DNA of 64,000 nucleotides. Source: Parietaria judaica (Eukaryota; Streptophyta; Magnoliopsida; Rosales; Urticaceae). The position numbers and the translations under genes were made by a program. Location: NCBI GenBank assembly GCA_954871525.1, contig OX940865.1, forward strand, positions 9,872,606-9,936,605, in the 5' to 3' direction. The notes below the pieces were generated by a model that was not told where the DNA came from, searched no databases, and saw only the letters and a program-made list of their open reading frames with translations. Below, piece by piece: positions 1,930 to 60,838 of this stretch. Numbering within the stretch: position 1 is the first letter of the stretch; every line of letters starts with the position of its first letter.

Positions 1930-2334
1930 TTAACCCCCAGTTTCTTGGGAGATTTTATCTGGCGAGAAACTGTTTTGTCTTTCTGTGTTTGAGCTAGTGG
2001 TTTAAAAAGATATGTGGGGGCGTACCGAGGAGTAACACTCCGTGTATGCTGACGGGGGTGTTCCGCGAGATAACCTTATCGTTTCACATCTACGATCGTG
2101 AGAAATTTTCCCAGAAATCACCTCCCGTTTTTACGGGGGCGTTTGGGAGATAACCCCTTAGCTACGCTTGCGTTTGCAGATTCGATGTCTTTTGGAATAA
2201 CCTTCTGTTTTGCATTTACGGGTGTTGTTCCGGGAGATACCCGTCCATATTTTTTCTTAGAAACGGTGAGCGTAAGAGCTCTTTGGAATTTGGACTGGCT
2301 TGGGCTTCTTTGTGTTTCGATCTTCTGTCAGTGT

Positions 2335-3160
2335 TTGCGCCTGAGCGTCTTATGATTTTGAACTTATGTTAAAGATAAGTAATTTGGTCTTGTGTCGGAG
2401 TTTGCGCCTAAGTTTCTCAACCCCCCGAGCTGCTGCCGGTGTTTGCGCCTGAGCGTCGTACAATCCTAGACTTATGCCAGAATCTTGTTCTGGTCTTTTT
2501 CCGATGTTCGCGCCTGAGCGTCTTACAGTTTCAGACTTATGCCAACTATGTGTTATTCGGTCTTTAGTCTGGGTTCGCGCATGAGCGTCTCAACCCCCGG
2601 AGCTTCTGCTGTGATTGCGCCTGAGCGTCTTACGATCCAGGACTTATGCCAGAATCAGGTTCTGGTCTTTTTCCGATGTTCGCGCCTGAGCGTCTTATGG
2701 TCTCGGACTTATTTACCAAGAAGTCATGCTTTACGTAACCTATTTCTTGGGTTTTTTGCCGGATTTGCGCCTGAGCATCTTGCTCCCGGTTTATGCGTCT
2801 AGGCATCTTGTTTTTATTGTTTTGCCGGTCGCGCTTTAGCGTCTTACTTCTCGGTATTTTGCCAGGTTTTGCGCCTTAGCGTCTTACTTCCTGGCTTTTT
2901 CGCGCCGTAGCGTCTTGTCGATTTCGCGCCTTAGCGTCTTATTTCTTGGTTTCTTTCTGCCAGTTTTTGCGCCTTAGCGTCTTACTTCCCGGTCTTTTGC
3001 GCCATAGCGCTTGTCGAGTTTCGCGCCTCAGCGTCTTATTTCTTGGTATTTTTCCAGGGTTTTGAGCCTCAGCATCTAACTTCCCGGTCTTTCGTGCCGT
3101 AGCGTCTTGTCGAGTTTCGCGCCTTAGCGTCTTATTTCTCGGTGTGTTTCCCGAGTAGGT
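2335..3160. repeat. tandem repeats with GCGCCTGAGCGTCTTA core
   Basis: At least a dozen diverged copies of a core reading GCGCC(T/A)NAGCGTCTTA occur here. In the left part the spacing is about 60-70 bp, the spacer repeating 'gacttatgccagaatc' and 'ggtctttttccgatgtt'; toward the right the unit shortens to 30-45 bp. Short open frames are by-products of the repeat. It lies in the untranslated part of the retrotransposon whose LTR ends at 1929. Confidence 0.75.
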
Positions 3161-3350
3161 GGGATTAATATCGCACCTTTCTCGGTCTTATTTTGCCTAA
3201 GTCGGAGAGATTAAGATCCGGCCTTTCTCGGTCTTATTTGCCTAAGTTGGCAGGATTGAGATCTTGTCTTTTCACGGCCTTTGAGCCTGAGTTGGCGGGA
3301 TTAAGATCTTGCATTTCTCGGTCTTATCGCCCGAGTTGACGGAACTAAGA
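3160..3350. repeat. tandem repeats with TCTCGGTCTTAT core
   Basis: Three to four units of about 50-60 bp share 'tcggtcttat', 'gcctaagt(c/t)gg' and 'gattaagatc'. This is a second repeat family, following the GCGCC family without a gap. Confidence 0.65.
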
Positions 3351-16210: not shown

Positions 16211-19200
16211 TTACATTTGAATCTGTGAAAAGTAATTCGTCAATTCTCGGTCGTATATATCGTTTTCTTGTTGTCGTTTGTTGGCCATAATCCAATCTCT
16301 CGAAAGCATAAGGATGTCGACCATCAATGATTTTGTAGACTTGCGGCGAGGCTCTAACATCCTTCCGAAAATTGAGAATGCCGCCTCCGATGATACCGTT
16401 GAGACCGGGATGGTGAGAATGTCACGAGCCAACAAGGATAAACCGGATACTCCGATCCATTTACGTGCCACCATTGAAGAATGTCGAGGCCTTCGTTAGG
16501 GCACGGTGTCGGAGGAAGGTTGCAGAATCGGGCGTACTCGTCGATGGTGTTGTGTCGTTGACGTCGACCAAGAACTCTAGATCCCGAAGCGCCACTTCCT
16601 TGTGAAGCCGGTGAAGAAGTTGATGCATTGCCGCGCCCGATAGCCGTAAGGTTGTAGAATAAACGGTGATTGTACACGTATGGTGATTGTGAACTACGCC
16701 CCCGCGTCCGCCCTATATTGAGCCAAAAATATTAAAGTTTAGATTAATGTTAGGAAATAAAAATAATTAATCTTAAGAAATAAAGTTAAAAAAAATTACC
16801 TGAGTTTGTTGTTGTTGTTGATTCGTTTCCTCCAGCTGATCTTCAATGTCGTTATATTTTTGCTCGTACTCTTGGTAAAGAGCCTTCATCTTCTGATCCG
16901 CATCGAAGTAATTGTGCGTCATGTAGGGCTCCCCCGTGATTTCTTGCATGGCATTTAAGACCTCCTGCAGCCTGGAAAGCTTAAGTGTCGGATCCACGAT
17001 TACAGCGGCGCAATATAGAAATAAGTGGTTTTCAGGACTCCAATAACTCTGAAACTTTGCAATCATCGGGGTTAGTACATCGGTAAATAAAGCATTACGT
17101 TTTGCGTTTTCAAAATGACAAAGTATATCGAAAATAGCAGGTAAAGCTCTCTGAGACGTGGGTGAGTAAACATGAGATAAATCAATAGTAATTTGATTAA
17201 AAAGGTGTAGAAAAGCCTGGAATTGGATGGCGATTAGCCAATCGTCTGGAGTGATGTCTTTGCGGTCTTCTTGTTCCGGGCTGTTGATCCAGTTTGTAAG
17301 AAGCTCCTTGTAGGGTAGGAGAACATCCAACATCATGTAGGTCGAGTTCCAACGGATCGGCATATCCGCTTGAAACGTTCTTACCTGGTAACCGTGAGCC
17401 CTGCAATAATCTTCCCAAGAAACTGTACGCATAGTAGATGATCGTATATACAAAATCGTGTTCCTAATTTTGGCGATACTATCGGAAATATCTTTTAAAC
17501 CGGATTGAACTATCAAGTTTATAATATGACACACACACATTTGATGAAAACAATCGTCCCTAAAATTGGTCAAACTTTCCTTCATTATTTCTACGGCATT
17601 GGCGTGGGCACTTGCGTTATCTAACGTAATGGAAACTACTATATCCTTAAGGTTCCAATCCGACAAAACTTCTAGTATCGCCTCGGCTAGGTTTACTGAT
17701 GTGTGCCTAACCCTCATCGGCCTAAAACCTATGATACGCTTTTCTATTTTGCAATTATCGTTGATAAAATGAGCTACAGCCGTAATATAATCATCATTAG
17801 CATGGCCTTTCCAACAATCCGACGTTAAAGACACTTTGTAAGAAGATTGTTGGAACATTTATTGTAAAGCGGCCATTTGCTCGTTATAAAATTTGATAAT
17901 TGTCTCGTGGGTTATATAATACGAGATTTCCCTATAGTTTATCAGCGCCACCTTCATCATCATTTCGTTAAAACCTTCTCACTCGGGCGTCGATATAGGC
18001 AAACCATCGCGTACAACCCACTGAGCAATATACAGTATATATAGATCATCGGGTAAGCGACTTACCTCCTCCGCCCGCTTTTTCTTCAAGCAATCCTTGA
18101 CGTGGTTTTCTAGGAGGCTGTTGCCGTCGTGCTTTAGATGAGCACTAAATTATGCATTGCAGTGTCGGCGAATCCCCCACCTATCTTCCAAGCCAGTTTC
18201 GTAGTTGTATCTGTAGTCGGGTATGAAGTCGTTCTGCCAAACCGCTCCCGTTAATTTCTTTCGCTTCCTCGCCAGCGGATGGGGGGGCCGACCGCGCTCA
18301 CCCAGAACAAAGGGTTGTTGTTGGGCCCCTCCACGTCCACGTCTAGCTGGCGGTGGCGGCGTTGGTAGAACTTTGTCAACTTCCTCCTCCTCGCCTTGTT
18401 CTTGAACGTAGTTCGGGTCCTCCGCATCATCATCATCATCATCATCATCGTACTGGGCATCGGGGTCGTTGGATAGGTTCCTCGACCTTGTTTCCTAAAA
18501 AAACATATTAATTTAAATATTACAAATTTACAAGAAAACGAAGAATATTACAATTACATTTATTAAATTTTAATATTGATCATATTAATTTAATTAAATT
18601 TGATATAGTTAAAATAAAAAAGTTAACAAAATTAAAAATGGTATTTCTTATGTGTGAAAATAATTATCAAACTCTTTTGGACGGAACTCCCGGAGGTTCC
18701 ACGACCAGATCGACTGGAAAGGATACTATGATCTCGCTTTAGGCCCAAGTTTTTCTAGACAGAACTCCCCGAGGTTCCCAGGCTAGCTTGGAGGAGATTG
18801 CAAAACAAACCTTATTTAAAAATCAATCTTTCTAAGACACCATAATCCAATAAGAACTTTATAATTATTACCACGCATACAAATTACATTTTTTTTTTTA
18901 AAAATTAACTTATTAAGTAACCATTTAAAGTTTAATTAAATTAATATGATTAAATGATTATTAAATCTCAAGAAATTCGTTTCTGATGTGGAAGATCAGT
19001 CGGAACCGCAACCATAGAGCATACTAAGACTTTCAAGAGACGTGGAAAATTAATTAATTAAAACTAAAATATTAGTTTTTTAACTTATTAAGTAACCATT
19101 TAAAGTTTAATTACAATAATATGATTAAATGATTATTAAATCTCAAGAAATTCGTTTCTGATGTGGAAGATCAGTCGGAACCGCAACCACAGAGCATACT

Positions 19201-26430: not shown

Positions 26431-26839
26431 TCAAAATAAAAGGGTTCTTAAGATTAATAGCCAATCTTGAAAGTGAGTTTAGCAAAATAGCCAACCTTTG
26501 GTTAATTTTGTAAACTAGCCAATTAACCATTTAAATGAATTTCTAATTACATTCTTACCCTTAATAATAAAAAACGAAATTAAAAATAAATAGAAATTAA
26601 CCACGTAATTTGTGGGTTATTAATCTGAAAAAATCAATGACATTTATTATGAATATTTATATCAATTATGAATTCATTTATTTTCATTAATTTAAAATAT
26701 TGCTATATATTGAAATAGCTATTAATATGGTAACAACCAAAACCAAACCCCCTTTTTGTGTATAATTCAAATTTTAAATTCAAAACATTCATATAATTTT
26801 CGGATTTTTTTTTTTTTAAAATATCAACAAATTAAAGAC

Positions 26840-27046
26840 GCTAATTAACGTAAATCAACAACGAATCAACGTAAATTAACATCGAATTAACGTAAATTAA
26901 CAACGAATTTACAATGAATTAACAACGAATTTACGTTAATTTACGTAAATTAACAACGAATTTACAATGAATCAACAACGAATTTACGTTAATTCGTAAA
27001 TTAACAATGAATTAACGTAAATTAACAACGAATCAACGTAAATTAA
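26840..27046. repeat. minisatellite of 'aacgtaaattaacaacgaatt'-like units
   Basis: About eight to ten irregular units alternate 'aattaacaacgaattt' with 'acgtaaattaac' and partial inverted forms. The array directly abuts the captured GC-rich fragment inside the Pack-MULE-like element and adds a spurious tail (LLIYVNS repeats) to the open frame. Confidence 0.7.
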
Positions 27047-27690
27047 CAGGCCTCCGGAATTTCCGGGAGAAGAGGATCTTCTCGACGGAGGCAAAGACGA
27101 CGACCTTGAGGTTCGTGGGCCGCCCGTAGAAGAGGAGGTCGGCCGCACTGTGGCGTCGCCCCGAGGCGTCGAAGATAGAGCCGCCGACTTTGGTCCCGAC
27201 GAGGTCTCGATCAGGCCGTCGCGGACGCCAAGCTGCCACGCCTTGGGCTCGGGGCGGTAGACGATCTTGCTCTCCACCCAGTCGTATGACTCGTTCACCA
27301 TCCGTGGGTCCCACGCGATACCGGACTTTGCGTAGAACTCGAGCTCGGCGTTCACGGCGCTGCTGCCACCCAGGACGCGGCCGCGCGCGTTGGGCACGCC
27401 GTCCTCGGACGTGAAGGCCTCGGCTGGCGAGTCGGCATCGGCGGCGGTGTTGGTGAAGCCGGCCGCAAGGGAGGCGAGGAATCCGTCCTGCGCCATGACA
27501 TCGCGGTCAACGTACGGCGTGCCGCCGCGCTCGAGCACCAGCACGCGGAACCCACGCGACAGCGTCGCCGCCAGCGGGCACCCGGCCGTGCCGCCGCCGA
27601 CAACTATGTAGTCGAAGTAGTCCTCCGGCGGAAACGACGTGGCGTTGATCACCAGCTTCCGAAATGTCGCAGCATCGACGTTCGTTCTTG
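27046..27690 (-). pseudogene. GMC oxidoreductase (HOTHEAD/mandelonitrile lyase-like) fragment
   Basis: The frame encodes the N-terminal FAD-binding part of a glucose-methanol-choline oxidoreductase: DYIVVGGGTAGCPLAATLSR (Rossmann loop), VLVLERGG, and the GMC signature region GRVLGGSSAVNAELEFY. It ends after about 150 matching residues at RDGLIE. The family's next block (LVGTKVGGSIFDASGRRHSA, DLLFYGRPTNLKVVVFASVE) follows at once in another frame, so a short piece is deleted and the frame is shifted. Most of the protein, including the catalytic His region, is absent. GC content is far above that of the neighbouring genes. It begins in mid-gene, preceded by a (GA)n tract at 27688-27720. This is a captured fragment and not a working enzyme. 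Confidence 0.88.
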
Positions 27691-27978
27691 AGAGAGAGAG
27701 AGAAGAGAGAGAGAGAGAGGAACGATGAAATGATTCAAATTGGTTATTAAATTCCTAAATTTGTGCATAATTAATTAAGCTTGATTTGTGCTGATTTTTT
27801 TAATTAATTACGAAATTTATAATTAAAATGATTAATTAAAGGGTATTACAGGGATAAAAAATATTAGTAAAATGCCACCTCATGTTAATTGGCTAGTTTA
27901 CAAAATTAACCAAAGTTTGGCTATTTTGCTAAACCTATGTTTCAATTTAGTTATTTGGTGCAATTTCTCAAAATAAAA

Positions 27979-48371: not shown

Positions 48372-48817
48372 CTACATTGTCTCAGATAACCGTACAATCT
48401 TATATCCACGTAGTCTCGGGAATATCCCATCAACAAATCTATTTGTCCAGGCAATAGAACTTATCTTGTTGCCCTCTCGGCTCACGAGATTGATGATTGT
48501 CATAAACAAAGAGCCGCACAAGACTTACAAATAGGAGAAACTAATATAATCCCGTGTAATAAAATCTGCAAATAAACTCTATATTCCTTAAAATCTACAT
48601 TGTCTCAGATAACCGTACAGTCTTATATCCACGTAGTCTCGGGAATATCCCATCAACACATCTATTTGTCCAGGCAATAGAACTTATCTTGTTGCCCTCT
48701 CGGCTCACGAGATTGATGATTGTCATAAACAAAGAGCCGCACAAGACTTACAAATAGGAGAAACTAATATAATCCCGTGTAATAAAATCTGCAAATAAAC
48801 TCTATATTCCTTAAAAT
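48372..48817. repeat. 223-bp tandem duplication
   Basis: Two abutting copies, 48372-48594 and 48595-48817, both start ctacattgtctcagataacc and differ at only about two bases (caatctt/cagtctt and caacaaat/caacacat). This is a recent event or an assembly artefact. The content is unidentified and follows the 5S-like remnant. Confidence 0.92.
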
Positions 48818-58300: not shown

Positions 58301-60838
58301 TTTAGTTTTCTCTTTTTAGAGACTCTAATATTCTCATTAGTTCAAGAGATTATTTTAGATCTTCTAGAATATTCTTATCCAATTCTTCTCTATTTTGACA
58401 TGAATTCAAAGCAGTTACCAAAAAAAAGTACCTTTTTTAATTTATTTTTTTAAGTTCGACAAAAGACGGAGAATACAAACCTGAGGGGGCAAACAAGATT
58501 GATGGAAAGTCGAGGGGCAATTGTCACAGCATAGTAACTCGCCCCCTTCGCCGCAGTGCCCACATGAGTCATCATTCCGGTCGTCGTTGTCCACTTGCAC
58601 GGCCGGAGAACCTCCTTTTCTGATCTTATACTCATCAGACCAAGCTTGAAGCTGGCAAATAGTGAAGGGCTTGCCAGATTCCATGAAAAGATTCAAGCAT
58701 GGCCGATTTGATTTAAACCCGGCATGAGCTTTGAAACCCGAAATAGAGAACAACTTGCCACAACACTTGCACAAGATGCCATCCCTAGAAATCAGACCAT
58801 CTTTGAGGACAGCATTATCGTTAGGGTTTCGATATTGTACCACATCGTTCAAAGATATAACCTCGGTGTTTATCAGCCACGACAAAACGGTTCGCACTCC
58901 TACCGAATACCATTTACCGTCTTTCAAGTGTTTACCTCCGTTCACCGTGCTCGGAAGCAAATGGCAAGTGCGCTTTTTGCTTTTGCGCTTCCTCCAAGCC
59001 TTTGATTTGCAAGCTTTCTTCCAAGAATTGCATCCAATAGCACTACTAGGGCTGAAATTCTTGTTCTTAATTATAGCTGAAACCAACAAATCGTCGTCTT
59101 CAATATGACATCTCACTGATTTTTTCTTTATTTCAGAATTGGTAGAAGAATTCCTCTTTGACTTTGAGACCTTTTTCTGAATCTTATTAAAGGAAGAGTT
59201 AACAGACAATGGGTTTTGGGGAATCCCTCTCATATTTGCGTTGGCCGGAGGGTTTTCTTGGTCCTGATTTGACTGTACAAACTTAGCATCGCCATTATCA
59301 GAGAGTAAGAAAGCTCCATCAGGAGAAGCTGAAGTTGAAATTGAAATCAGTTCCATCTCGGATAGCTTTTTGGACTTCTTTCGATTCTTCTTTTTTGAAC
59401 CATCTCCTGGAGAAAACGAATCTGCCTGCTCCAGTTGAGAAGATTCCGATTTCTGAAAAGGAACCGACCCCTGAGTTGTGCTGTTTGGACATTCATACCC
59501 TGATTCGAGAAGACGATGCTCAAAATCAGTCACTCCCAGTCCCATGAACTCATCGTTATTCTCAAGAGAACTAACTTCGTTAGTCGTATCCACATAAATA
59601 TTGGAGCGTGATTTATTACAGATCGGGCATTTTACATTTCCATCTTGATGACCGGAAACGGAACACAAGCAATTAGCTGCTTGCTGGGAAAAGTCAAGAA
59701 AATCTCCCTCTTTTGAAATTTGGTGATCAACGCCGTTTTTCTTCACTAACCCATGACTTGCTTTAACCATTTGTCCCTTTCTCAGTGCACCAATCTTTCT
59801 ATCAATAAACGCCACAACAACAAAGGGATCTAACAGCCTCCACCTGTAAGCCAATTCCGTGCGATTTTCCTCCTTATCAAGAATTACCAAAGTATCAACT
59901 AAATCAGACAAGAATTGAGTGATATTACACCACTGCTTAGTATCCTCATCATTTTTATCTGCCCTTAAAATCTCACCACAAACCCTCCAAGCTTTGGCGA
60001 GTACACGAATTAACTTTCCATTTGGCATCCTATAAACCGACTCCAAATGCGTCCTGTTCGGTCTTTGGCGCTTTTCAACTTCCCATCCCAATTCACCAAG
60101 CAAACGAGCGACATGGTACTGTAGAATTGGGCGAGGATCCTTCTTCAAATTTTCCTTTGATCCAATCTCAAACGTGTCATGCTCAAAAGTTTCGGGTTCT
60201 TGAGATCCTTTCAAATCGGGTAAAGGATGGGATTTGAGAGTCTGGTTTTCAGCAAAGAAAAGTCTCGAAGCAAAGCTCTCCTGGGAAACAGGTGAAGCAA
60301 TCGTTTTACCGAAAACCGCTTCGGTCCTTTCCTTAGCTTCATCGAAAGTGATGCCTCTTACAATTTCTCCGTGCTGCTTTAATAGATAGCAACTAGACTT
60401 AAGTCCCTGTTTGGAACATTCCACCAAACGGAAAGTAACCACTTCCGAGACTGTGGTGGAAGCACTCTTTTCAAGAGACGCTGATGAAATCTTAACTGGA
60501 TCAGACTCTACAATATCAGGGTCATAAATCGAAGAATTTATCACTTTACCACCCAATTCCTTGCCGTTTTCTTTTACAGTAGCAGAAATTTTCGGGAAAG
60601 TCTCCGGTTCAGAGGAAAAATGACTCGTAATGGCTGAATTATCACTGTTTGAATAAGTAGAAGGGTCAGCATTTTTGCTGGACTCGCATTCAAAGTTAAT
60701 TGCTCCAGTTACAAGGCACTTCTTGCTAGCATGACCGACATCGTTTCTGAAGAAAATCTCTCTGAATATAGACCGCTCAAGCTTCGACCCTTCAAAACCA
60801 TCATCTATCAAATCCTCAATCCCGCTATCGAATAACAT
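55364..60838 (-). CDS. IDM1: IDM1/ROS4-like histone acetyltransferase (MBD, PHD, GNAT)
   Basis: IDM1/ROS4 is a nuclear acetyltransferase that recognises methylated DNA and unmodified H3 tails and acetylates H3 to permit ROS1-type DNA demethylation. Eight coding exons on the minus strand join in frame: 58481-60838, 57922-58045, 57499-57581, 56777-57018, 56353-56439, 56169-56268, 55826-56030 and 55364-55728, giving 1187 residues, virtually the length of Arabidopsis IDM1. An MBD-like block lies at about 235-290 (VARLLGELGWEVEKRQRP); Lys-rich segments at 480-495 and 610-625; a conserved C2-containing region at 640-735 (CKCCGKLFSISGFKAHAG); the PHD finger from residue 759 (CGHCGEGGELLCCDNCPSTF), continuing as SWYCPNCACWICGSF in exon 2; and the GNAT domain from exon 4 on, with the acetyl-CoA loop in KYRRQGMCRILV. 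The C-terminal 120 residues are acidic and unstructured. Related PHD-GNAT paralogues exist, but length and MBD favour IDM1. Confidence 0.92.

What the first reader, a model, noticed from the sequence alone, without database searches (positions are those of the whole stretch)
26442..27967. Pack-MULE-like element has captured a GC-rich GMC oxidoreductase fragment
About 80-bp inverted ends, an identical 11-bp flanking direct repeat (TCAAAATAAAA) and an internal gene fragment with no transposase fit a Mutator-like gene-capturing element. The captured piece is the N-terminal FAD-binding part of a HOTHEAD/mandelonitrile-lyase-like gene, with a deletion plus frameshift after RDGLIE. Its GC content is far above that of the intact genes here. 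Pack-MULEs are best documented in grasses and are known to favour GC-rich captures, so a clear eudicot case is worth describing.
Basis: partly seen in the sequence, partly recalled or inferred. Interest (0 to 1): 0.75.

Follow-up and report, generated by a model that had tools for sequence, protein, structure and literature searches.

The report
Transposon family swapping captured gene pieces
A small plant jumping element has copied a piece of an ordinary oxidoreductase gene from another chromosome, and its close relatives carry pieces of other genes between the same ends, which makes a good case for studying how such elements pick up genes.

Summary
The element is real and is a Pack-MULE: a Mutator-like element without transposase, carrying a copied gene piece. 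Its limits are 26442-27969; the target site duplication is 9 bp (AAAATAAAA), not 11. In the host genome 40 copies with its arms (window included; best 40 of 2028 candidates) were read: 31 have perfect 9-bp duplications, against 27 of 1560 mismatched flank pairs, and one copy has an empty site. The likely donor is a GMC gene on C20, 96.3-98.4% identical to the 22 GMC-carrying copies and closer to each than its paralog on C3. The high GC is the donor's; frameshift and deletions followed capture. A (GA)n tract edges the cargo in 40 of 40, and the GMC capture ends inside a (GA)n tract of the donor. All 42 copies read lie on six large contigs, against 59 of 150 MULE transposase hits, suggesting one subgenome. 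A clear new member of a known kind; (GA)n-guided capture is inference.

The parts
26442..27969 (.). whole element (Pack-MULE, 1528 bp)
   Evidence: limits fixed by comparison with the other 39 copies and their 9-bp duplications
26433..26441 (.). left target site duplication AAAATAAAA
27970..27978 (.). right target site duplication AAAATAAAA
26456..26527 (+). left inverted repeat (core 26477-26527)
   Evidence: 72 nt, 85% complementary to 27884-27955; core 51 bp at 98%
27884..27955 (-). right inverted repeat (core 27884-27934)
26843..27048 (.). AT-rich minisatellite (about 21-bp unit) that ends the left arm at the cargo boundary
   Evidence: present at the left cargo boundary in the 40 copies printed
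27046..27689 (-). captured GMC ((R)-mandelonitrile-lyase-like) fragment, FAD-binding N-terminal part, with 37-, 18- and 31-bp losses after capture
27690..27719 (+). (GA)n tract at the cargo/right-arm junction, shared by the right arm and by the donor gene
27720..27969 (.). right arm
   Evidence: shared with other copies, some cargo classes having other right-arm types

Best explanation
A Pack-MULE of a multi-copy family in a plant most likely of the Rosales. Shown by sequence: the copies read share a left arm ending in an AT minisatellite, a right arm that starts at a (GA)n tract, and a cargo slot between them. The cargo of the window copy was copied at DNA level from the 5' part of a GMC gene whose nearest present copy is on C20; the copied stretch starts at a 3-bp match (ACA) to the left array and ends inside a (GA)n tract that the gene carries in its inferred intron 1. 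The 22 GMC copies share these junctions or deletions of them and look like one copying event followed by transposition with 9-bp duplications, further losses and recombination. Inferred: the copying happened during repair or replication of the element, with the polymerase switching templates at short matches, the (GA)n tract acting as one such match; movement is by a MULE transposase supplied in trans. The window copy is a broken gene piece and most likely codes for no enzyme.
For: 31 of 40 copies have perfect 9-bp duplications, 6 more 8 of 9, 3 fewer; mismatched flanks give 9 of 9 in 27 of 1560. All 22 GMC-carrying copies examined are closer to the C20 gene (96.3-98.4%) than to the C3 gene (94.4-97.0%); majority state 11 of 732 differences to C20 and 22 of 730 to C3, diagnostic sites 17 to 6 with 1 other. 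L009 keeps the stretch between the (GA)n tract and the coding part, so the copy is of DNA, not spliced RNA. In the 5501-base donor locus the only 12-mers shared with the right arm of a non-GMC copy (L022) start at 2913-2940, that is in the (GA)n tract where the copying ends. PF10551 MULE transposase domains are plentiful, 150 of 150 scored over the cut-off among 723 candidates (some may be host genes derived from MULEs).
Against: No autonomous element with these ends was identified. The outer ends of the inverted repeats are poorly matched. There is no DNA outgroup for the two GMC genes, so capture before they split is not excluded; the 17:6 sites could in part be changes of the C3 gene alone. 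For the DUF740 cargo the donor-like gene has no (GA)n tract of four units or more in the stretch fetched, so (GA)n guidance is shown for at most one capture. The tract in the arm could have come with the GMC piece and spread by recombination, though three other cargo classes carry it. The donor's exon structure is inferred without transcripts; its two main exons are open, with one TAA counted at the end of the second match. No expression or small-RNA data.
Confidence: 0.9

Rival explanations
1. A pseudogene of the GMC gene that happens to lie between unrelated repeats, not a transposon.
For: The fragment is broken by a frameshift and deletions.
Against: Full-length copies of arms plus cargo at four other places at 91-99%, 9-bp duplications, an empty site for one GMC-carrying copy.
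Confidence: 0.02
2. A gene-capturing element of another kind (Helitron, CACTA or retroposed cDNA).
For: Helitrons also carry gene pieces (review PMC13317346, passages); CACTA elements too (recalled).
Against: 9-bp duplications and long inverted ends; the duplication length is that given for MULEs, 9-11 bp (PMC3310237, passages); L009 keeps intron-like sequence, against a cDNA.
Confidence: 0.03
3. The (GA)n boundary is not a guide for capture but a slippage-prone tract; its place at the junction is coincidence, helped by a habit of such elements to copy 5' parts of genes, where CT tracts may be common (recalled).
For: The tract varies widely in length between copies, is a short (CT)5 in the older DUF740 copy at C21, and the DUF740 donor-like gene shows none of four units or more in the stretch fetched.
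Against: In the GMC donor the copied stretch stops inside the tract; tracts of 7 or more units number 5 outside the element in the 64-kb window; of the GMC gene loci examined the two donor paralogs (six loci, overlapping) carry one and 15 other loci do not, though not all of these reach intron 1. The element copies L073 and L074 carry one too.
Confidence: 0.45
4. The chromosome bias reflects insertion preference or incomplete scoring and not two subgenomes.
For: One search scored only 40 of 2028 candidates, chosen by similarity to the window copy. DUF740 pieces occur on both contig sets.
Against: The GMC-cargo copies found by the protein search (18 copies; 84 of 153 candidates scored) are all on the same six contigs; duplicate gene pairs seen join one contig of that set to one outside it (C20-C3, C22-C8, C4-C1, C10-C5); MULE transposases show no bias, 59 of 150 against 40.2% of bases.
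Confidence: 0.15

Closest known systems
Pack-MULEs of rice, Arabidopsis, tomato and maize
   Same: 9-11 bp duplications, long inverted ends, host gene piece in a non-autonomous element, multicopy cases, preference for GC-rich sequence in rice and maize (PMC3310237 passages; PMC8277862 passages)
   Different: one set of arms with four cargo classes among 40 copies, mosaics between them, and donor-like genes at 96-98%; GC-rich capture in a eudicot, where PMC3310237 expects less GC contrast
Pack-TIRs of animals and the gap-filling / fork-switching models (PMC8277862, passages)
   Same: gene piece between transposon ends, microhomology at breakpoints (1-36 bp, median 2 bp there)
   Different: here one breakpoint lies in a microsatellite shared by arm and donor; the word microsatellite occurs 0 times in the held main text of that paper
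SaTar microsatellite-targeted MULEs of guayule and rice (PMC5907723, passages)
   Same: non-autonomous MULEs associated with microsatellites
   Different: there the microsatellite flanks the element and guides insertion; here it lies inside, at the cargo boundary
Pack-MULEs in allotetraploid Oryza minuta (PMC3890553, passages)
   Same: same element type with completely different captured sequences, in two subgenomes
   Different: grass, single loci; here a family confined, as far as read, to one contig set

Membership tests
Mutator-like element (MULE) | 9-11 bp target site duplication | tested here: met
   9/9 in 31 of 40 copies, 8/9 in 6, fewer in 3; control 27 of 1560
Mutator-like element (MULE) | long terminal inverted repeats | tested here: met
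   72 nt at 85%, 51-bp core at 98%; outer ends weaker
Mutator-like element (MULE) | moved by a MULE transposase (in trans for short copies) | tested here: inconclusive
   MULE domains abundant; none tied to these ends
Pack-MULE | contains a piece of a host gene with an identifiable donor elsewhere | tested here: met
   gene at C20:31544455-31546143
Pack-MULE | no transposase gene inside | tested here: met
   only ORF of 120 aa or more is the GMC one; six-frame Pfam scan finds no transposase family
Pack-MULE | the whole unit transposes | tested here: met
   arms plus cargo at many places with own duplications; one empty site
SaTar element | element flanked by microsatellites, often without duplication | tested here: not met
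   duplications present; (GA)n is internal; some copies lie in runs of A or T

The most novel reading that the evidence does not exclude
The family is a cassette with a standing docking site: the (GA)n tract at the edge of the cargo slot lets the broken or stalled element anneal to CT/GA tracts near the 5' ends of host genes, so cargos are swapped again and again while the arms stay. This could explain why such elements take 5', GC-rich gene parts (the 5' preference is recalled). The family ran this cycle within one progenitor of a young allotetraploid.
Probability: 0.25. Interest if true: 0.7.

Novelty: new member of a known kind. Interest (0 to 1): 0.45.

Why it matters
How MULEs acquire gene pieces is described as not yet understood (PMC3310237) or perplexing (PMC8277862; passages of both). 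Here a donor-like gene, breakpoints, later deletions, mosaics between cargos and chromosomal confinement can all be read in one genome, so template-switching models and a microsatellite docking idea become directly testable, and the family may serve as a marker for the proposed subgenomes.

Tried and rejected
Rejected: foreign (grass) origin of the GC-rich piece, since the donor-like gene in the same genome has GC3 0.885 and the best outside single-module hits are Rosales. The Nyssa row P0001 scores higher because it is a two-module protein (sequence seen); the Zingiber row P0006 is taken to be the same kind from its length only. Rejected: frameshift as part of the capture. Rejected: (GA)n taken from the DUF740 donor. 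C21:25170500-25172500, first taken for a DUF740 donor, proved to be an older Pack-MULE of the same family with duplication TTATTTAAT. Of the DUF740 genes only those on C4 and C10 were fetched; those on C1 and C5 were not compared. Cluster 2 cargo (8 of 40) looks by recall like a plant KNL1/Spc105 N-terminus; Pfam gave nothing and the protein search 3 short proteins, one of Ficus carica called hypothetical; its donor was not found. Cluster 4 (3 of 40) and the extra piece of L037-L040 stay unidentified. Pfam in a wrong frame gave nothing. No DNA of relatives was available, so there is no orthologous empty site for the window copy. Papers PMC3813661 and PMC3029777 were not held. Looking at a nettle genome paper (listing, passages) did not settle the host; the species is not identified.

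Dropped: 9 rows of four genes, 2 of the older C21 element, 6 TAG rows at 246-333 or 248-333 (all on the six contigs), and 11 shorter or otherwise stopped rows (8 on the six contigs). With the 6 the TAG rows are 7 of 22, so that contrast is weaker than the GMC one.

Full report
What is there. The element spans 26442-27969. Its inverted ends pair over 72 nt at 85% with a 51-bp core at 98%. It is flanked by AAAATAAAA on both sides. A six-frame Pfam scan of the element finds only FAD/NAD-binding families, below their cut-offs.

The family. The host genome is held (G000, 538.7 Mb, window at C7:9872606-9936605). A search with the element gave 2028 first-look candidates, of which 40 were scored. The 40 places, the window's own included, were fetched. 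Of the 40, 31 have a perfect 9-bp duplication, 6 have 8 of 9, and 3 have fewer (the best offset within 12 bp was taken). With the same offsets, flanks taken from different copies give 9 of 9 in 27 of 1560 pairs. For one GMC-carrying copy of the 40, L037, the joined flanks match a stretch beside L003 at 94.6% over 502 columns straight across the junction, an empty site; its duplication is a run of T and so is ambiguous.

The cargo and its donor. The cargo is the N-terminal FAD-binding part of a GMC oxidoreductase (oxynitrile lyase 3gdn, E 1.5e-37). Outside the genome the best single-module relatives listed are Morus 74%, Trema 72%, Ulmus 70%, Cannabis 69%, which points to Rosales; the species is not identified. 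Inside the genome two genes stand out, on C20 and C3; their two main exons are open, with one TAA counted at the very end of the C20 match, and no transcript was seen. All 22 GMC-carrying copies examined (20 of the 40, plus L073 and L074) are closer to the C20 gene, 96.3-98.4%, than to the C3 gene, 94.4-97.0%. The majority state differs from C20 at 11 of 732 sites and from C3 at 22 of 730; the two genes differ at 24 of 730. Without an outgroup, capture before the two genes split is not excluded. The GC richness is that of the donor: the exon stretch holding the captured part is 66.7% GC with GC3 0.885 in the C20 gene.

Breakpoints. On the left the array reads TTAACA and the donor GCGACA just before GGCCTC, a 3-bp match. 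On the right the copied stretch ends inside a (GA)n tract that the donor holds at L072:2914-2951; on the gene's strand the stretch from there to the coding part begins with GT and ends with AG, so it looks like intron 1. L009 keeps that stretch. In the 5501-base donor locus the only 12-mers shared with the right arm of a non-GMC copy (L022) lie in this tract. The window copy lacks 37, 18 and 31 bp against the donor; L005, L006 and L009 keep the first two stretches and L009 the third, so the losses followed the capture.

Other cargos. The 40 inserts fall into four classes: GMC 20, cluster 2 with 8, cluster 3 with 9, cluster 4 with 3. The inner stretch is 51-61% GC in all 40. Cluster 3 is DUF740, E 1e-36, 96-97% over its main block to a gene with an open frame of 543 aa at C4:17779319-17780767; an older copy at C21 carries 811 bp of it at 97.2% with duplication TTATTTAAT. 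A (GA)n tract of at least four units sits at the right cargo boundary in 40 of 40. The ten truncated GMC copies of type B (L006-L008, L030-L036) end in a stretch that resembles the right end of cluster 3 (read; aligned for L006; a 20-bp exact match of L006 to the older DUF740 copy), so they look like mosaics. L037-L040 hold GMC pieces around an unidentified piece.

Chromosomes. All 42 copies read lie on C4, C7, C10, C20, C21 and C22, 40.2% of the bases; so does the older C21 copy. MULE transposase domains lie there in 59 of 150 and name 13 large contigs in all (Fisher p 1.4e-14, treating copies as independent). Duplicate gene pairs seen join this set to the rest: C20-C3, C22-C8, C4-C1, C10-C5. 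The simplest reading is a young allotetraploid of 6 + 7 chromosomes in which this family multiplied in one progenitor. This is inference; one search scored only the best 40 of 2028, and rows of the DUF740 search are less clean (see Tried and rejected).

How it likely works. Shown: donor DNA in a slot between constant arms, and spread with 9-bp duplications. Inferred: template switching during repair or replication of the element at short matches, with (GA)n as the match for the GMC capture, and movement by a transposase in trans. The DUF740 donor-like gene shows no (GA)n at its end, which speaks against a general rule.

Known or new. Pack-MULEs, also in eudicots, are in print: 46 in Arabidopsis and 220 in tomato (PMC3310237, passages). 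The same element type with different captured pieces is in print for Oryza minuta (PMC3890553, passages). Searches for Pack-MULE with microsatellite (15 of 33 listed), with subgenome (10 of 25 listed), and for related terms with template switching (12 of 21 listed; 128, 8 of 316 listed) showed no title or abstract start that describes a microsatellite at the cargo boundary. Only open-licence papers were searched, and only passages of five papers were read besides those of the nettle paper.

Noticed in passing
G000 contigs C20/C3, C22/C8, C4/C1, C10/C5: Duplicate gene pairs, 24 of 730 sites different in the captured GMC stretch, and 13 large contigs in the MULE tally suggest a young allotetraploid with 6 + 7 chromosomes.
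   Followed up: partly
G000, about 62 places: A DUF740/OCTOPUS-like gene piece (mostly profile positions 241-362) is spread over the genome, including a type with one TAG on contigs where the GMC family was not found; whether these are Pack-MULEs too was not examined.
   Followed up: partly
L037-L040: An unidentified second captured piece sits between two GMC pieces.
   Followed up: no
window 16773-17858: ORF of 361 aa that looks by recall like a hAT-type transposase (RICESLEEPER-like).
   Followed up: no
window 48372-48817: Tandem duplication of a 223-bp unit, two copies at 99%.
   Followed up: no
window 2332-3189: GC-rich minisatellites with a repeated GCGCCT..AGCGTCTTA-like motif.
   Followed up: no
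window 58442-60838: Large exon of an INCREASED DNA METHYLATION 1-like PHD-finger gene.
   Followed up: partly
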